Positions 1 through 45,561 of a stretch of DNA of 45,986 bases are shown here, in pieces. Origin of the DNA: Prochlorothrix hollandica PCC 9006 = CALU 1027 (lineage in GTDB: Bacteria > Cyanobacteriota > Cyanobacteriia > Prochlorotrichales > Prochlorotrichaceae). The notes beneath the pieces were generated by a model. The model saw only the letters and a program-made list of their open reading frames with translations, was not told where the DNA came from and did not search any database. Location: the NCBI RefSeq assembly GCF_000332315.1, contig NZ_KB235942.1:40290-86275 (forward strand). The letters run 5' to 3'. Within the stretch, counting starts at the first letter, position 1. The number at the start of each line of letters is the position of its first letter. Made by a program: the position numbers and the translations under genes.

Positions 1-402
1 CAGGACCGTCTCAAAGGGGTTCAGTTTACTGGGGAATCATCGACCTCGGGTAGGGTTCTCGCCCCCGTGCCGACCCTCTTGGCGACCCCCAACCGGGGCA
101 ACCACGGGGGGATTGCCCCTACCAACATCGGTCCTCTTGGCAACCCACAGCCGGGGCAACCACGGGGGGATTGCCCCTACCAAAATCGGTCCTCTTGGCG
201 ACCCACAGCCGGGGCAACCACGGGGGGATTGCCCCTACCAAAATCGGTCCTCTTGGCGACCCACAGCCGGGGCAACCACGGGGGGATTGCCCCTACCAAA
301 ATCGGTGAACCCACCCCAGGGAAATGGACCCTCTCAAATCGCCTAAGGTCTGTTGTCTAGAGCCTGAAACTCTCATTCTCCTGTGGCCCCCTGAATAATT
401 AC
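1..402. repeat. Repeat family A, copy 1 (long form, left end outside window)
   Basis: This is the right part of a MITE-like element that occurs five times in the window (also 7746-8024, 20380-20514, 30019-30302 and 45428-45561). It ends in the terminal inverted repeat CCCCTGAATAATTAC, whose partner GTAACTATTCAGGGG would lie left of position 1. An inner inverted segment (CCTGAAAC near 363) pairs with GTTTCAG at the other end in complete copies. There is no coding capacity. The central part is expanded by a 58 bp tandem array, so this copy is longer than the others. Confidence 0.8.
75..306. repeat. Tandem array, 4 units of 58 bp
   Basis: Four head-to-tail units start at 75, 133, 191 and 249. 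Each holds the inverted motif GGGGCAACCACGG/GGATTGCCCC and ends in AATCGGT. The same 58 bp segment is present once in repeat A copies 2 and 4, so the array is a local amplification inside copy 1. The units touch without spacers, which excludes CRISPR. Confidence 0.85.
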
Positions 403-6550: not shown

Positions 6551-7696
6551 ATGGTTCTGGTTCGCGTTCCTGCTCTGTCCGGCGTTTGTACAATAACGTT
6601 GGCTTCCCTCCTGGCCTGGGCTGGTCAGCCTGCTCCCCTGCTGGCCCAGACGGGGGTACTGCCCCTGTCTCAGACCCTGGCCCAATCCCCTGACTCAAGC
6701 TCTACCCTTCCCGACGGCGGCAATCAAACCCCTGAGGGTGATGAGATTACCGATTTTCGACCCCTGAGCCAAGACACCAGTCTCCTCAGCCTAGAGGGAG
6801 GTCAGCGGTTGTTAGAGTCGGCGGCCCTGGCCATGGATCGCCAAGATTACACAACCGCCCAGAAGGATTTGCAAAACGCCCGCCTTGCCTTCAATCAAAT
6901 TAGCAACTTCCACCAACAGCTTTTTGATCTGTTTTTGGGCATTGATCCCAGGGTGGCCGATCGCCAGCGTTTAAGTGCCGTAGAGTCCGCCCAGTTACGG
7001 GACGAAGCCGCCTACCGCTTGGCCCTCGCCCACCTGGCCCAAAATCAGCCCGATGTGACCGTACCTCTGTTAATCCAAGTCATCCGTAGCCAGAACCCCA
7101 CCTCCAGCTTGGGACAACAGGCCCACCAAAACCTCTTTAACTTGGGGTTCATGGATAGCCCGCCCCCCGCCTTGGCCCAGGGCAATGCCGCCGATCTCGT
7201 TACCCCCTCCCCAGGGCCAACGGAGGGAACTGCTGGGGAGACGGCTGCGGCTGACGATCGACCCCTGGCCCGATCGGACAGCGCCCTCAGTGTGGCGGCG
7301 GGGCGACGGATGATGCAAGAGGCGGAAATGGCCTTGGCCGATCGCAACTATAGTCTCACCGTCGAAAAGTTCAAAGATGCGCGGCAGGTGTTCAACCAAC
7401 TCAGTAATTTTTATGAGGGTCTCAGTGCTGCGTTTCGGGGTATCTACACCGATATTGCGGAAACGGAGCGGATGCGGGCTGTGGAGACGGCTCAATTGCG
7501 GGATGAGGTGACCTACCAGCTTGCCCTGGTGCATCGGGTGCAAAACCAGTCCGAATTAGCCGTGCCCCTGTTGATTCAGGTGCTACAAAGCCAGAATCCC
7601 TCCTCGGAGTTGGGACAGCAAGCCTATCAACAGTTACTGGAGTTGGGTTTTGTGGATACCCCCTACCGCTGGCAAGGGGTAACCGGCGTTCGCTAA
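6551..7696 (+). CDS. Exported protein with two homologous ~125-residue halves, unknown function
   Basis: A signal peptide (hydrophobic stretch ending PLLAQ) is followed by a linker and two related modules. In each, an alpha-helical segment (RLLESAALAMDRQDY in the first, RMMQEAEMALADRNY in the second) leads to AFNQISNF / VFNQLSNF, then AVESAQLRDE / AVETAQLRDE, then VPLLIQV, QNP(T/S)S and GQQA(H/Y)Q, ending LGFMDSP / LGFVDTP. The repeats look like TPR-type helical hairpins and probably act as a periplasmic protein-binding scaffold. I do not recognise a named family. ATG 6551 is preferred because it starts directly before a standard signal peptide; ATG 6524 would add nine residues. Repeats A and D follow directly downstream. 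Confidence 0.75.
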   Translation: MVLVRVPALSGVCTITLASLLAWAGQPAPLLAQTGVLPLSQTLAQSPDSSSTLPDGGNQTPEGDEITDFRPLSQDTSLLSLEGGQRLLESAALAMDRQDYTTAQKDLQNARLAFNQISNFHQQLFDLFLGIDPRVADRQRLSAVESAQLRDEAAYRLALAHLAQNQPDVTVPLLIQVIRSQNPTSSLGQQAHQNLFNLGFMDSPPPALAQGNAADLVTPSPGPTEGTAGETAAADDRPLARSDSALSVAAGRRMMQEAEMALADRNYSLTVEKFKDARQVFNQLSNFYEGLSAAFRGIYTDIAETERMRAVETAQLRDEVTYQLALVHRVQNQSELAVPLLIQVLQSQNPSSELGQQAYQQLLELGFVDTPYRWQGVTGVR

Positions 7697-7708
7697 GACC
7701 CTACCGGG

Positions 7709-8077
7709 TTCCCCCTTAAAGTGGGACAAGATTAACAGGACGGTGGTAACTATTCAGGGGGAAAGTGAGTAGGGTTTCAGCCCCACGATCGCCGGTCAGA
7801 GCCGAATCAACGGGGTGCATTTCACCTGGGAACCATTGACCTCGGGTAGGGTTCTCGCCCCCGTGCCGACCCTCTTGGGGATCCACAACCGGGGCAACCA
7901 CGGGGGGATTGCCCCTACCAAAATCGGTGAACCCACCCCAGGGAAATGAACCCTCCCCAATCGCCTAAGGTCTGTTGTCTAGAGCCTGAAACCCTCATTC
8001 TCCTGTGGACCCCTGAATAATTACGGGACGGTGGGGCACGGAGCGCCCCACTATCCTGGCTTAAGTTGATACCCACC
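7709..8077. repeat. Repeat family D, copy 1, split by repeat A
   Basis: The left half (7709-7745, CTTAAAGTGGGACAAGATTA...) and right half (8025-8077, GGGGCACGGAGCGCCCCAC...GGCTTAAGTTGATACCC) together make one family D palindrome like those at 19424, 29947 and 43033. A complete family A element is inserted between them. Confidence 0.8.
7746..8024. mobile_element. Repeat family A, copy 2: complete MITE-like insertion with target duplication
   Basis: The element is 279 bp with terminal inverted repeats GTAACTATTCAGGGG and CCCCTGAATAATTAC and inner arms GGGTTTCAG / CTGAAACCC. It is flanked by AGGACGGTG (7737-7745) and GGGACGGTG (8025-8033), a 9 bp direct repeat with one mismatch, while an uninterrupted family D copy has the target once. 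It has no coding capacity, so any movement would need a transposase in trans. Confidence 0.8.
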
Positions 8078-8144
8078 CTACCCTGGCATCCACACTACGT
8101 TAACCGCTATATAGTGTTGTGTAGAGAACGATCAAGGAGATCCT

Positions 8145-8396
8145 ATGGTGACCCCGGAACAAGTGACGGCTATGATTCAAACCCAGCTTCCCGATGCCCA
8201 AGTGCAAGTGGAAGATTTGACGGGTGGGGGAGACCATTACCAAGTCACGGTGGTGTCATCCGCCTTTGCAGGACAACCCCTCGTTAAGCAACACCAAATG
8301 GTTTATGGGGCAGTGAAGGGAGCCATGGCCACGGAAGCCATCCACGCCTTGGCCCTGAAAACCTACACCCCAGAGGCGTGGCAAACCTCTAACTAG
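8145..8396 (+). CDS. bolA: BolA family protein
   Basis: The 83-residue protein has the BolA/IbaG fold. It begins with a helix ([16 protein letters not shown]), continues with strand segments containing [12 protein letters not shown], then the helix-turn-helix-like [12 protein letters not shown] ending [12 protein letters not shown]. BolA proteins bind monothiol glutaredoxins and share a [2Fe-2S] cluster through a conserved histidine; His in KQHQMVYGA is the usual invariant residue. A strong ribosome site AAGGAGATCCT precedes the ATG. The CGFS glutaredoxin gene follows after 182 bp containing a family B palindrome, so the pair is likely functionally linked and possibly co-transcribed. Confidence 0.93.
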
Positions 8397-8405
8397 CCCA
8401 TCTGC

Positions 8406-20379: not shown

Positions 20380-20514
20380 GTAACCGTTCAGGGGGGGGGA
20401 CGAAGTTAGTGCGTTTCAGCCCTCCGATCGAGGGTTAAAATAGCCCGAAGTGCAACAATTCTAGATTTTCAGAGCCTGAAACCCACCTTCCCCCGTTGAC
20501 CCCTGAATAGTTAC
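20380..20514. repeat. Repeat family A, copy 3 (short form)
   Basis: 135 bp with ends GTAACCGTTCAGGGG and CCCCTGAATAGTTAC and inner arms GTTTCAG/CTGAAAC. The long middle of copies 1, 2 and 4 is absent. No target duplication is visible (TGCAGGGGT versus TGGTCAAGC). Confidence 0.8.
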
Positions 20515-20625: not shown

Positions 20626-23600
20626 TTACAGAGATTTCAAAAAGCGTACTAACTTCTGGGTTTCGCCATCGGGGTTGGAGAACCAATCAGTAGACCAAAT
20701 TCGATAAAGCTTCCAACCCAAGCGTTCTAAGACTTGCTGTCGCAGGCGATCACGATCACGGGCTGCTTTAGAAGAGTGATAGGTTGCTCCATCGCACTCA
20801 ACTCCCAGGAGATAGGTACCAGGATGATGGGGACTGACGATCGCTAGATCGATAAAATACCCAGAGACTCCCACTTGGGGCACAACTTCATAACCTGCCA
20901 ATTTCAAGCGATTTGCCACGAAAATTTCAAAGTCACTATCAGGCTCACGTCCAGTAGCTACTCCAGTTTGAAGCTGCTGGGTTTGAGCATAGCTCAGATA
21001 ATCCCGCAGAATACTGACCCCACGATGGCGACCTGGGCGAATATCACTGGGCTTCATCGACGAAAAGATAACAATTCGCTCTTTAGCCCGGGTAAACAGG
21101 ACATTCAAGCGCCGATGGCCGTTTTTCGAGTTAATCGGCCCAAAGCGCTGCATCACGGGTACTCCTGGCTCCGTGGAACCATAAACCGTCGAAATGAAAA
21201 TGACATCCCGCTCATCCCCCTGTACGTTCTCCAAATTTTTGACAAAGAACGGTTCTAAGGTCGCTTCTTGCTGAACTCGGTACTGCTCTAGGGCTGGATT
21301 CAGGGCAAAGAGATGATCTAGTTCATCGATCATTAGCTCTTGCTGTTTCTGGTTTAAGGTTACAATCCCTAGGGACAGATGGGGAGTCTTTTCCACAAAA
21401 TCGATAACAGCAGCGGCAACAGCTTGGACTTCGTAGATATTTGCTTGGTTTTTGTAGATCCCCTCCGCGACGTATCGGTATTCCACAGCAAAGTCTTGCC
21501 GAGGCGCTGGGAAAACTGTGAGGCTGTTGTCGTAAAACTCCCGATTAGAAAATGCAATCAAGCTCTCATGACGAGAGCGATAGTGCCACTTGAGGCGACG
21601 GGCTGGGTGGAACACCTTGGTAGCCATATCTAGAATAGACTCATCATCCAAGTCTGAGTCTTCAGTATCACTCTCTGATACATCAATCTGAGATTTAAAG
21701 AAAGTGGTCGGTGGTAACTGTTTCGGATCTCCGACAACGACCAGTTGCTGAGCACGAGCCAAGGCACCTAAAGCTTCCTCAGGTCGCATTTGAGAAGCTT
21801 CATCGATGATTACCAAATCAAAGGTAACTGCATCCGGGGGAATAAACTGGGCTACGCTAGCGGGAGACATCATCCAACAGGGTTTAAGCTGCTGGAGAGC
21901 GCGACTAGCCCGCTGGAATAGACTACGCTGGGAAATATGGCGTCTTTGTTTGTTGACTTCGTTCTTAATCAGCGCTAGCTCCGTATACTCTGATTTACGA
22001 CCTCGACAATGACCCTCCGTGACCTCAACTCGACTCAATTGTGCAACCAAGTGCTTCTGATACAGGTCGAGGAGTTCCCGATCGATTCGTTGAAACTGCT
22101 CCCGTGCCTGAGCCTGGGAGATGCCTGCTAATTCTGCGAGATCTGAGTGCTCTTGATAGGCAAGACGGAGTAGTGATTGGTAGAAAACAAAAGGATAGGC
22201 AAGATCGAGATACTTCAAGCTCAAATGCTTATCCATAAAAGCATTCAAGAAAGCCCCAAGGCCATCCTCTAGAACCTGCTGATGGGCACGACGGTAGTTA
22301 ATCCACACAGGGAGTTCTAGTTTAGCCTCGATCGCCCGTGCCAACCGTTTCGTGATTGCAGGTAGTGCCATCGTTGAGAGATCGGTATCACCAAACATCT
22401 CTCCCAAGTTAGGTTGCCCCAGAAGCAGAAAGGTCTCGCGCTGAATCTTCTCCTGCTCAAGTCGCTGATCTAAAGCACCAGAGACTTGCTTAAGCCCTTG
22501 GAAGACCTTGGCTGTGTTGGGTGAAAAAAGAGCTGTTTTCAGGGGTTGGGGTAGCGGAGATTGGAGGATCTCTTGGCTCAAGTTGAGGGTTGCTTCTAGC
22601 GGTGCGTAGGGAGTCTGGGATCCTTGGTAAAAGTCGCCCAGGGTTTCGCGAATGGGGGAGATCTCTATTTGTTGCTGAAGCTGTGTTAACTGATTTAGAC
22701 GCTGCTCCATGTCCTGAACCAGGGCATTAAAAGCCAGCAATGTCCCAAACTCAGTGTGTAGACCCTTGAAAAAGCGCCCACAAATTCGCTTCATCACGGG
22801 ATTTTCTTGGAAATCCTCTAACTTATCTTTGAAACTGGCAATAGCACGTAGCTCAGATGCAATTTCAGCATCAGACAGAGATACTTTGCGTCTCTGGATC
22901 TTTTCCCAATGTTTCGTAGCACGCTTGTATTCAACACTAAACAGGCTACTCAGAAAATTGGCCTCACTGAGTTTTGTTGCATAGGAGGAGAGTAGGGTCG
23001 CATCGCCAGATATCTCTAGATGGTATTTTTGATGTAGGCGCTGCTGTGTCAGGCGCAAGGCTTCCTGCTGATCCCTGGCTTGGACTAAACTGTGACGAGT
23101 GGCATGGCAGAGATCTGGGAAACGCTGTTTTAAGCCTTGAATGGTTTCAGCAATCTCAAGCACCGTGATACTGGCAAGACTGCCAGAGAGAGAGGCTGGA
23201 AAAAGATTGAGAGAGGTGATCTCTGGTGAGATGATGTCTCGCTGAAAGGCGCTTTGGATCGCTTGAGCGTTTTTCTGATAATCCTGGAGATGTTGTAGAA
23301 ACTGGACAGCTCCCTCTCGAACCGAGGCAGTGGTCAGAACCGGAAGCAAAGTGGTGTCAACCGCAGGACTCAGGTGCGGACATTGGTGGAGTTGGGCCTT
23401 TAAACGATGGATCTGCTCTAAGGTCTGAGGTGCTTCAATCTTCCAGGACTGAGCAACCTTTTGCAGCTCTGTGTGCAGTTTTTCTAGCAGCGTAGACCAT
23501 TCGACTGTGTGGTTATACAGATCTTGCTGATCGATCGGGGAAAGGTTTTGTACCGTCAAGCCAAACCAAGGATGGCGTTCTAGGGGAGTGTAGCACTGCA

Positions 23601-25188
23601 AAATCGATTGGTGCTGTTGTCTGAGTTCCCGAAGATGCGTGATTTTACGATCGAAGCTAGCTTTACCCATCCCGATCGCCTCTGGATCCTGGATTTGGCT
23701 CAGTTGTACTGACACCTCTAAGCCTTGGCACCCTTCTTCTGCTCTTTTACTGGCCCAGAGTAATTCCTGAATTGTGTAGCCGACATTACCAAATGGCTGA
23801 TTTAGTAGCGAAGCATAGCGAGAAAGTTGGTTTCTCAGGTGCTTATACTCTTGAATGTGCTTTTGGAGGGCTTGGGTAACTTCCTCAGGTGCTTCTTGAT
23901 CCAAGCGTCGCCTGAGGTTGTTATAAAATTCCTGACGGGAGCCATTAGTTGCATGGCTCTCTAGGCAGTAATTGGCTAGATCTGCGAATGTGAGGCGATT
24001 GTAGACAACATCAAGGGCAGCTTTCTTGGCCGCTACAAACAGTACTGTCTTACCTTGGGCAAGTGCTGCGGCAATTAGGTTAGTGATCGTTTGACTTTTA
24101 CCGGTTCCTGGCGGTCCTTCAATGACTAAGTTTTTACCAGACATGACATCCGCAATCGCCGAGAATTGGGACGCATCAGCATCTGTGATTAAAAGCGGCA
24201 CCTTAGACTCAACATGAGGATCATCAACCTGATGGTCCCTGGCTATTAGTCCTTCGCCGATGCTACCCTGACCCATGAGTAGTGAAGTCATTAGAGGATG
24301 CTGGAGGAGAGCATTCCCATCATTAGGCCAGCGTTCTGGTTGAAGATCCTTAAAGAGAGCAACTCCCCCAAAGGAGAACAGACTTAAGGTCATGAAGCGC
24401 CGGACCCGCCATCGCCGCTGATCTTGAATGAGTATTTCAACTTGCTGTAAATATTGTTCTGCTGTTGCTGGGCTAGCTTCAGTTTCCTCATCCTCTGATG
24501 TGTCTGGTGCAGGCAAGACTAGCCCCAAGTCTCGCTTCAGGCGCTCCCGCAAACTGAAGTTCTCTTCTGGATCCTCTCCATAGGAGCGCAAGGTATAGGA
24601 GTATTGTTGGTTACGCAGTTCCCGGTCAAGGCTAACTGGATAGAGCCACAAGGGCGATAGCAACGGTTTTTCGGATGCTTCAGACTCATACCATTCCAGC
24701 ATCCCAAAGGAAAGGTAGAGTGTATTGAGTCCCGTCTCTTGTAGCGATTTCCGGGCATTATCCCGGATCCCTGATAGTTTGCGCTCTAGCTCTAGAGGAT
24801 AGAGCAAAGCTTGCAGGGTCTTCTTCTGTTGCTTTTTTTGAGTTTGAGGTGAGACGGAATCGGAAGCTAAATCGTAGGCGGGATTAATCCCTAAGTCCTG
24901 GGCATACTCCAGTCTAGAAGCTGTTTCTTGACCTTGATCCGTAGCTATGCTGGTTTCGTAGCCTTCTGTCTCTGCTTCTGATTCTGGGGGGGGCGGTAAC
25001 GGGTCAAAGGTAAAAGACTTCCCTTCTTCTAGCGATCGCAAAATCAGATCTGGCGATCGATCCACAATCCGAAGCTGTGTCCGAGATCGATCAGAGAACT
25101 GAAAATTGAGAAGACGATTACGGCCACTGAGATCTAAAAGTCGTAGGCGAAGGTCTGCAAGCTGCTGCTTAACCAGAAGATCGGACAT
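20626..25188 (-). CDS. DUF4011/SF1 helicase with C-terminal Vsr-like (MTES_1575-type) nuclease
   Basis: The 1520-residue protein has a DUF4011-type N terminus (LADLRLRLLDLSGRNRLLNF). A superfamily 1 helicase core follows: Walker A EGPPGTGKSQT near residue 360, Walker B VIIDEASQMRPEEAL near 1125, motif III VVGDPKQLPPT, and motif VI region RRLNVLFTRAKERI near 1350. A long helical insert lies between motifs I and II. The last 105 residues form a Vsr/PD-(D/E)XK-like nuclease (SGYFIDLAIV, GVECDGATYHSS, LERLGWKLYRIWSTDWF). Such single-gene helicase-nucleases are candidate anti-phage proteins. ATG 25188 was chosen (AAGG upstream, start MSDLLVKQQ); the frame extends 52 codons further but there overlaps an mrr remnant on the other strand. 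Confidence 0.9.
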   Translation of the reverse strand: MSDLLVKQQLADLRLRLLDLSGRNRLLNFQFSDRSRTQLRIVDRSPDLILRSLEEGKSFTFDPLPPPPESEAETEGYETSIATDQGQETASRLEYAQDLGINPAYDLASDSVSPQTQKKQQKKTLQALLYPLELERKLSGIRDNARKSLQETGLNTLYLSFGMLEWYESEASEKPLLSPLWLYPVSLDRELRNQQYSYTLRSYGEDPEENFSLRERLKRDLGLVLPAPDTSEDEETEASPATAEQYLQQVEILIQDQRRWRVRRFMTLSLFSFGGVALFKDLQPERWPNDGNALLQHPLMTSLLMGQGSIGEGLIARDHQVDDPHVESKVPLLITDADASQFSAIADVMSGKNLVIEGPPGTGKSQTITNLIAAALAQGKTVLFVAAKKAALDVVYNRLTFADLANYCLESHATNGSRQEFYNNLRRRLDQEAPEEVTQALQKHIQEYKHLRNQLSRYASLLNQPFGNVGYTIQELLWASKRAEEGCQGLEVSVQLSQIQDPEAIGMGKASFDRKITHLRELRQQHQSILQCYTPLERHPWFGLTVQNLSPIDQQDLYNHTVEWSTLLEKLHTELQKVAQSWKIEAPQTLEQIHRLKAQLHQCPHLSPAVDTTLLPVLTTASVREGAVQFLQHLQDYQKNAQAIQSAFQRDIISPEITSLNLFPASLSGSLASITVLEIAETIQGLKQRFPDLCHATRHSLVQARDQQEALRLTQQRLHQKYHLEISGDATLLSSYATKLSEANFLSSLFSVEYKRATKHWEKIQRRKVSLSDAEIASELRAIASFKDKLEDFQENPVMKRICGRFFKGLHTEFGTLLAFNALVQDMEQRLNQLTQLQQQIEISPIRETLGDFYQGSQTPYAPLEATLNLSQEILQSPLPQPLKTALFSPNTAKVFQGLKQVSGALDQRLEQEKIQRETFLLLGQPNLGEMFGDTDLSTMALPAITKRLARAIEAKLELPVWINYRRAHQQVLEDGLGAFLNAFMDKHLSLKYLDLAYPFVFYQSLLRLAYQEHSDLAELAGISQAQAREQFQRIDRELLDLYQKHLVAQLSRVEVTEGHCRGRKSEYTELALIKNEVNKQRRHISQRSLFQRASRALQQLKPCWMMSPASVAQFIPPDAVTFDLVIIDEASQMRPEEALGALARAQQLVVVGDPKQLPPTTFFKSQIDVSESDTEDSDLDDESILDMATKVFHPARRLKWHYRSRHESLIAFSNREFYDNSLTVFPAPRQDFAVEYRYVAEGIYKNQANIYEVQAVAAAVIDFVEKTPHLSLGIVTLNQKQQELMIDELDHLFALNPALEQYRVQQEATLEPFFVKNLENVQGDERDVIFISTVYGSTEPGVPVMQRFGPINSKNGHRRLNVLFTRAKERIVIFSSMKPSDIRPGRHRGVSILRDYLSYAQTQQLQTGVATGREPDSDFEIFVANRLKLAGYEVVPQVGVSGYFIDLAIVSPHHPGTYLLGVECDGATYHSSKAARDRDRLRQQVLERLGWKLYRIWSTDWFSNPDGETQKLVRFLKSL

Positions 25189-25260
25189 GGGAAAAACCTT
25201 GGGCTGGCTTGGGATAGAAATATCTAATATTCTAGTGGGCACTCCGCATAATTCAAGTTT

Positions 25261-25476
25261 TTGGGGTTCTCCGGAATTTACGGTCAGGGAATCTTGATTA
25301 CAACGGGAACCTTTACCCGTGATGCGGTCAAAGAAGCAACCCACGATGGAGCAACACCGATCGATCTGATTGATAGCGAAGAACTCATGGACAAGCTCAA
25401 GGATTTATCCCTGGGAGTGATGACAGTGTTAGTGGAGTCCGTGACCATCAACACACCCTGGTTTCAGTCTCTATAA
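25261..25476 (+). pseudogene. Remnant of an Mrr-type restriction endonuclease (C-terminal end)
   Basis: About 65 codons match the end of Mrr-like restriction enzymes: GQGILITTGTFTRDAVKEA, then PIDLIDSEELMDKLKDLSLGV. The upstream catalytic domain is missing; the sequence before 25261 is the start region of the divergent helicase gene. It is therefore most likely the leftover of an mrr gene cut by the rearrangement that placed the helicase here. It is followed by a family B palindrome. Confidence 0.7.
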
Positions 25477-30018: not shown

Positions 30019-30302
30019 GTAACTATTCAGAGGGGGACGAAGTTAATAGGGTTTCAGCCTGACGATCGCCGGTCAGGATCGTCTCAAAGGGGTTCAGTTT
30101 ACTGGGGAACCATCGACATCGGGTAGGGTTCTCGCCCCCGTGCCGACCCTCTTGGTGGCCCACAACCGGGGCAACCACGGGGGGATTGCCCCTACCAAAA
30201 TTTGGGGGATCTGCCAACGCGAAATGGACCCTCTTCCATCGCCTCAGGTCTGTTTTTTGGAGCCTGAAACCCTCATTCTCCCGTGACCCCCTGAATCATT
30301 AC
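30019..30302. repeat. Repeat family A, copy 4 (long form)
   Basis: 284 bp with ends GTAACTATTCAGAGGG and CCCCCTGAATCATTAC and one 58 bp-type internal module (GGGGCAACCACGG/GGATTGCCCC). It again touches a family D element. The flanks show no target duplication. Confidence 0.8.
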
Positions 30303-35561: not shown

Positions 35562-35972
35562 TCAGTCAATCTCGGATTGTTGCTGGATGTACTGCTTGAG
35601 GACTGAAATGGGTGCTCCACCGCAGGAAATAATGCAGTACGAACGACTCCAGAAAACGGGTTTACGGTAGACCTTGCCTAGGTGCTCCGCAAATTCTTTG
35701 CGAATCAGACGACTAGAAACAGTCTTCAAGTTGTTCACCAGCTTTGAGGGCTGAACCTTTGGGTTAACGGATATGAGTAGGTGAACATGGTCGGCTTCAC
35801 CGTTGAACTCCATCAGCTTCCCCTCCCACTTCTCCAGAGTCTCGCCAAAAATTATCCCTAACCGTTCAAGCATGGGCTGGGTAATGCATTTGCGGCGGTA
35901 TTTGGTGCAGGCGACTAAATGGAATTGAATACTGTAAGAGCAGTGATAGAGCGTATTTAGCTGTTGTGGCAT
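35562..35972 (-). CDS. tnpA: IS200/IS605 TnpA (Y1 HUH transposase)
   Basis: The 136-residue transposase acts as a dimer on single-stranded DNA hairpins. The HUH pair is in DHVHLLISV (about residues 61-69). The catalytic tyrosine is in VLKQYIQQQ near 128. The start CSYSIQFHLVACTKYRRK is standard for the family. It appears complete. Transcription is divergent from tnpB with both starts inside 30 bp, so their promoters lie within each other's coding region or the small gap. Confidence 0.95.
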   Translation of the reverse strand: MPQQLNTLYHCSYSIQFHLVACTKYRRKCITQPMLERLGIIFGETLEKWEGKLMEFNGEADHVHLLISVNPKVQPSKLVNNLKTVSSRLIRKEFAEHLGKVYRKPVFWSRSYCIISCGGAPISVLKQYIQQQSEID

Positions 35973-45427: not shown

Positions 45428-45561
45428 GTAACCGTTCAGGGGGGGGACGAAGTTAGTGCGTTTCAACCCTCCGATCTAGGGTTGAAATGGCCCGAAGTGC
45501 AACGATTCTAGATTTCCAGAGCCTGAAACTCTCATTCCCCCGTTGACCCCTGAATAGTTAC
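45428..45561. repeat. Repeat family A, copy 5 (short form)
   Basis: 134 bp, GTAACCGTTCAGGGGG to CCCCTGAATAGTTAC, nearly identical to copy 3. Flanks GATGGCGGC and GTCTTCGGC share only five of nine positions. Confidence 0.8.

What the first reader, a model, noticed from the sequence alone, without database searches (positions are those of the whole stretch)
7709..8077. MITE-like element inserted into another repeat with a 9 bp target duplication
Family A copy 2 splits a family D palindrome. AGGACGGTG lies before it and GGGACGGTG after it, while uninterrupted D copies contain this target once. This is direct evidence that family A moves by transposition. The element has 15 bp terminal inverted repeats (GTAACTATTCAGGGG) and inner inverted arms but no gene, so it is a non-autonomous element needing a partner transposase I could not identify in the window.
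Basis: seen in the sequence. Interest (0 to 1): 0.75.

Follow-up and report, generated by a model that had tools for sequence, protein, structure and literature searches.

The report
IS66-driven MITE nested in palindromic repeat
A short, gene-less jumping element, present in about 250 related copies in this cyanobacterium, has landed inside another repeat, and the enzyme gene that very probably moves it, an ordinary IS66-type transposase, was found elsewhere in the same genome.

Summary
Confirmed. The element is window 7746-8024 (279 bp, 15-bp inverted ends, no gene). It splits an 81-bp palindromic repeat D (7706-7745 plus 8034-8074) and is flanked by AGGACGGTG/GGGACGGTG. Joining the flanks and dropping one duplicate rebuilds a D copy that aligns without gaps to uninterrupted D copies elsewhere (73 matches). 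Genome-wide the TIR has 508 ends against 6 in the control. In an unbiased 2.05-Mb sample, 23 of 53 MITEs keep a duplication (18 of 9 bp, 4 of 8, 1 of 7; chance about 0.3). The other 30 have none, and several sit in a D repeat whose second half is missing, so flanks were probably lost after insertion. Two wrinkles: related IS66 elements mostly make 8-bp duplications (24 of 27), this one mostly 9; and the MITE carries a GTAG-tagged palindrome pair (REP/BIME-like) that it has apparently spread. A 134-bp sister class has no duplications (0 of 14) except one pair bracketing cargo genes. A well-supported new member of a known kind.

The parts
7746..8024 (+). MITE (m280 class), 279 bp, no gene
7746..7760 (+). 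left terminal inverted repeat GTAACTATTCAGGGG, identical to both ends of the IS66-family element
8010..8024 (-). right terminal inverted repeat (GTAATTATTCAGGGG read inwards)
7737..7745 (+). left copy of the 9-bp target, AGGACGGTG
8025..8033 (+). right copy of the 9-bp target, GGGACGGTG (8/9 identical)
7706..7745 (+). left half of the interrupted palindromic repeat D
8034..8074 (+). right half of repeat D
7846..7873 (+). inner GTAG-tagged palindrome R2 (GTAGGGTTCTCGCCCCCGTGCCGACCCT)
7891..7918 (-). inner GTAG-tagged palindrome R1 (GTAGGGGCAATCCCCCCGTGGTTGCCCC), in opposite orientation to R2 as in a BIME; also found in other cyanobacteria outside this MITE
30019..30302 (+). second full m280 copy in the window; left border abuts repeat D; no target duplication
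359..402 (+). right end of another, incomplete copy (only one TIR found, 388-402)
20380..20514 (+). 134-bp sister class (m134), no target duplication
45428..45561 (+). 134-bp sister class (m134), no target duplication

Best explanation
The interval is a non-autonomous miniature element (MITE) moved in trans by the DDE transposase of a resident IS66-family, ISBst12-type insertion sequence. Shown: identical 15-bp ends, ends alike over about 45 bp, the same mostly 9-bp target duplication in MITE and IS, nested insertion in repeat D with the empty site present in dozens of paralogous D copies, and about 250 copies in the genome. Inferred: the transposase binds the roughly 40-bp ends of both IS and MITE, joins them to a target cut with a 9-bp stagger, and host repair fills the gaps. 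After insertion many copies lost one flank (adjacent deletion or rearrangement), which removes the duplication. The MITE's interior carries a pair of GTAG-tagged palindromes, which it has multiplied along with itself.
For: TIR statistics. TSDs: bimodal 9-mer mismatch distribution in m280 (13 with 0, 5 with 1, none with 2-3, the rest 4 or more) against a shuffle mean of 0.3. IS copies: 7 of 9 with a perfect 9-bp TSD, 1 with 8 bp, 1 none. Empty site in D: 73 matches, the best without gaps; the nested copy L036 matches 81 places, and L007, with an 8-bp TSD, has a 100% identical empty site. Partner: 1631-bp element with a 504-aa ORF; PF03050 E=1e-42, NF033517 317 bits against a cut-off of 180, zf-IS66, DUF6444; D247, D305 and E435 invariant in 12 relatives. 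End similarity: 36/43 aligned positions for the right end, 33/40 for the left.
Against: 30 of 53 m280 copies and all 14 m134 copies lack a TSD, and TSD-less m280 copies are not clearly more diverged than TSD-bearing ones, so simple ageing does not explain the loss. Swapped flank pairs expected from reciprocal recombination were not found in 36% of the genome. No orthologous empty site could be examined. Mobilisation in trans is inferred from shared ends; nothing here shows movement.
Confidence: 0.92

Rival explanations
1. The MITE was moved by a different, now dead, relative of the present IS (a second IS66 lineage), and the present 1631-bp IS is only a cousin. This is a variant of the main explanation: same family, different individual source.
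For: Remnants of other IS66-like elements with the same TIR exist at C4:186182-186418 and C7:23071-23249. The subterminal parts of the MITE are not closer to the present IS (36/43 aligned positions) than to the ends of m134 (39/45). MITE copies differ by about 7% from their consensus, while the IS copies compared are 99-100% alike.
Against: The 15-bp TIR is identical and the 9-bp preference is shared with the present IS. PF03050 finds only one intact transposase in the genome.
Confidence: 0.3
2. The flanking 9-mers are a chance or pre-existing repeat and the element spreads by recombination, not transposition.
For: More than half the copies have no TSD.
Against: 20 observed against 0.30 by shuffling; the duplication is specific to 9 bp (and 8) and to the exact TIR border; paralogous empty sites.
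Confidence: 0.02
3. Spread is driven mainly by the inner GTAG palindromes (a REP/RAYT system), the IS66 ends being passengers.
For: GTAG-tagged palindromes lie inside most copies; Y1_Tnp genes, one in a 315-aa open frame, are in the genome; some copies have extra or tandem R1 units.
Against: Duplications and sharp borders lie at the IS66-type ends. Of 119 R1 matches in 2.05 Mb, 103 lie in MITE context, so R1 appears to follow the MITE. RAYT-type enzymes are not known to leave 9-bp duplications (general knowledge).
Confidence: 0.04

Closest known systems
IS66 family, ISBst12 group (e.g. ISDge4, ISBst12)
   Same: Single transposase ORF, zf-IS66 plus DDE_Tnp_IS66 domains, ends starting GTAAC. ISDge4 has ends GTGACTACTCAGCA / GTAACTGCTCAGCA and an 8-bp repeat (PMC12898284).
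   Different: The duplication here is mostly 9 bp. In related loci 24 of 27 measurable duplications are 8 bp and 3 are 9; Frankia IS66 also gives 8 bp (PMC11946415).
Bacterial MITEs with an identified IS parent (e.g. MITEPsy1/ISPsy2)
   Same: Short, gene-less, ends nearly identical to a resident IS, duplicates its target (PMC3189936).
   Different: Different IS family, higher copy number (about 250), carries REP-like palindromes. Few papers in the held library mention IS66 together with MITEs, and none of those read describes an IS66-derived MITE.
Nezha, a cyanobacterial MITE
   Same: Cyanobacterial MITE (cited in PMC10969869).
   Different: Its ends and parent were not compared here; from memory it belongs to another IS group.
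GTAG-tagged REPs / BIMEs
   Same: R1 and R2 begin with GTAG, are imperfect palindromes and lie in opposite orientation, like the class described in PMC3733652.
   Different: Here they are mostly inside a MITE. A dedicated RAYT flanked by R1/R2 was not shown.

Membership tests
MITE (non-autonomous DNA element) | Short, no transposase gene, terminal inverted repeats | tested here: met
   279 bp, 15-bp TIRs 14/15 identical, no ORF of 80 aa or more inside
MITE (non-autonomous DNA element) | Multiple copies with target duplications | tested here: met
   About 250 copies; 23 of 53 unbiased m280 copies keep a TSD
MITE (non-autonomous DNA element) | Ends shared with a full-length autonomous element | tested here: met
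   15-bp TIR identical to the 1631-bp IS
MITE (non-autonomous DNA element) | Mobilisation in trans demonstrated | not testable with these tools
   Needs a transposition assay
IS66 family, ISBst12 group (the partner IS) | DDE_Tnp_IS66 transposase with zf-IS66, over curated cut-offs | tested here: met
   PF03050 147 bits, zf-IS66 29.9, NF033517 317 bits
IS66 family, ISBst12 group (the partner IS) | Single ORF without accessory tnpA/tnpB | tested here: met
   On the coding strand one ORF of 504 aa fills the 1631-bp element; the only other ORF of 100 aa or more is on the opposite strand
IS66 family, ISBst12 group (the partner IS) | TIR beginning GTAA, like relatives | tested here: met
   GTAACTATTCAGGGG; most relatives have GTAAnC.TTCAG-type ends
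IS66 family, ISBst12 group (the partner IS) | 8-bp target duplication typical of the family | tested here: inconclusive
   IS copies: 7 of 8 duplications are 9 bp, 1 is 8 bp; relatives 24 of 27 are 8 bp, 3 are 9 bp; Fisher p = 1.3e-4. A shift in preference, not an absent feature.
GTAG-REP / BIME (inner core) | 5' GTAG tag followed by an imperfect palindrome, many copies | tested here: met
   119 R1 and 87 R2 matches in 2.05 Mb, reversed control 0
GTAG-REP / BIME (inner core) | Matching RAYT transposase flanked by the same palindrome | tested here: inconclusive
   Y1_Tnp genes exist; R1/R2 were not noticed in the flank sequence printed for C9:412354 but no scan for them was made; other genes not checked

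The most novel reading that the evidence does not exclude
A high-copy IS66-derived MITE family that (a) uses a transposase whose usual target stagger has shifted from 8 to 9 bp, (b) acts as the vehicle that multiplies GTAG-tagged palindromes, and (c) can pair up around cargo genes: one 2035-bp MITE-cargo-MITE unit with a perfect outer 9-bp duplication (C9:174354-176388).
Probability: 0.45. Interest if true: 0.5.

Novelty: new member of a known kind. Interest (0 to 1): 0.36.

Why it matters
It turns a sequence-only guess into a defined IS-MITE pair with a testable transposase. MITEs of the IS66 family were not described in the papers read here, and IS66 transposition is poorly characterised (PMC12898284). 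Natural variation between 8- and 9-bp duplications within one transposase family gives a handle on what sets the stagger. The MITE also shows how one mobile element can multiply another repeat class (GTAG palindromes), which matters for interpreting REP abundance in cyanobacteria.

Tried and rejected
Apparent short IS variants (430-981 bp) were not counted as internal-deletion derivatives because each holds exactly 100 N, an assembly gap. Point-mutation decay of TSDs was rejected for most TSD-less copies: the mismatch distribution is bimodal and divergence is similar. Reciprocal recombination between copies was tested by matching orphan 9-mers: only the C9:174354/176255 pair matched, and that reads as a composite. 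No other duplication length, and no shifted border, rescued the 134-bp class. Single-protein search of named genomes found nothing; an alignment query worked. No Rfam family matches 7400-8400. The transposase has no sequence match among solved structures.

Full report
What is there. Window 7746-8024 is a 279-bp element with 15-bp inverted ends GTAACTATTCAGGGG / GTAATTATTCAGGGG and no gene. It interrupts an 81-bp repeat, D, whose sequence folds into a very stable hairpin (z = -9.4). The left and right target copies are AGGACGGTG and GGGACGGTG. With one copy removed, the joined flanks match 73 places, the best listed without gaps at 87-90% over 81-84 bp. A second MITE copy (L036) entered the same arm of another D with a perfect duplication, GGGACAGTG.

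How common. The window lies in a 5.65-Mb cyanobacterial genome of 13 contigs (psaA/psaB are in the window). The TIR occurs 508 times at up to 2 mismatches against 6 for the reversed pattern, about 250 elements. I read 2.05 Mb without selecting for the element (C9:1-1,200,000, C1:1-800,000 and the window). It holds 74 TIR-paired elements: 53 of the 280-bp class, 14 of a 134-bp sister class, 4 IS copies and 3 others.

Target duplications. Of the 53, 18 have a 9-bp duplication (13 perfect, 5 with one mismatch), 4 an 8-bp and 1 a 7-bp one; 30 have none. The chance expectation for 9 bp over all 74 elements is 0.3, observed 20. The distribution is bimodal, so duplications are either intact or wholly gone. 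Four TSD-less copies (C9:229747, C9:844138, C1:314674, C1:770502) abut half a D repeat whose continuation is missing on the other side; W:30019 also abuts D. This is what loss of one flank after insertion would leave. Swapped flanks, expected from reciprocal exchange, were not seen.

The partner. A 748-bp relative with perfect duplication GGCATTAAC (L024) led to an intact 1631-bp copy, C1:1205342-1206972, with both ends identical to the MITE's left TIR and duplication GCTTCCATG. Its single 504-aa ORF is an IS66-family transposase: PF03050 147 bits, zf-IS66, DUF6444, NF033517 317 bits against a cut-off of 180. Other copies are split by 100-N assembly gaps. Of nine tabulated, seven have perfect 9-bp duplications, one 8 bp, one none (L088, 430 bp, may be a different short element with similar ends). 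The MITE right end matches the IS 3' end at 36 of 43 aligned positions and the left end at 33 of 40. This shared-end evidence is why I infer mobilisation in trans; movement itself was not shown. Older IS66-like relics with the same TIR (C4:186182-186418, C7:23071-23249) leave open that a cousin was the original source.

Eight versus nine. Relatives of the transposase (about 40-55% identical) were collected from the class and from named genomes. Where duplications could be measured, 24 of 27 are 8 bp and 3 are 9 bp; published IS66 insertions also give 8 bp (PMC12898284, PMC11946415). The preference for 9 bp here differs from relatives (Fisher p = 1e-4 for IS copies, 1e-6 for MITEs; copies within one genome are not fully independent). 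It is a shift in preference, since both lengths occur on both sides.

The interior. Between the IS66-type ends lie two GTAG-tagged imperfect palindromes in opposite orientation, R2 (7846-7873) and R1 (7891-7918), like a BIME (class described in PMC3733652). R1 has 119 matches in 2.05 Mb, 103 in MITE context. The same palindromes occur in other cyanobacteria without these TIRs (L131-L142), so they were probably captured and then multiplied by the MITE. Some copies have extra or tandem units (L004, L018, L030).

The 134-bp class. It has similar ends and about 3-13% divergence from its consensus, but no duplication of any length in 14 copies. One pair, C9:174354 and C9:176255, shares a perfect outer duplication AGTTCTTCG, bracketing RusA-like and AHJR-like nuclease genes; among 30,978 distant end pairs none matched perfectly. 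This reads as a composite MITE-cargo-MITE unit. The segment contains an assembly gap, so its length is uncertain. Why single 134-bp copies lack duplications is unexplained.

Verdict. The kind of thing is known; the IS66 parentage, the 9-bp preference and the REP cargo are the new details.

Noticed in passing
C9:174354-176388 (L186): Two 134-bp elements bracket RusA-like and REase_AHJR-like genes with a perfect outer 9-bp duplication; the AHJR-like gene also lies beside a 134-bp element at C4:184090 (L090).
   Followed up: partly
window 20380-20514, 45428-45561; C9 and C1 sample: 134-bp sister class: 14 copies with intact ends and no target duplication of any length; some share one flank but not the other.
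   Followed up: partly
window 20626-25344 (-): 1572-aa DUF4011/AAA helicase/REase_MTES_1575 protein, matching PADLOC candidates PDC-S37 and Hhe; possible anti-phage defence gene next to a 134-bp element.
   Followed up: partly
window 35562-35972 (-): IS200-like Y1 transposase, 136 aa (PF01797, 141 bits).
   Followed up: no
window 7706-8074 and about 84 sites in 2.05 Mb: Repeat D: 81 bp with a very stable central hairpin and a smaller one at one end; its own mode of spread is unknown.
   Followed up: partly
L131-L142: R1-type GTAG palindromes in two other cyanobacterial genomes (G003, G022) without the MITE ends.
   Followed up: partly
C9:859388-859800 (L220): Tandem array of R1 palindromes with a period of about 50 bp.
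   Followed up: no
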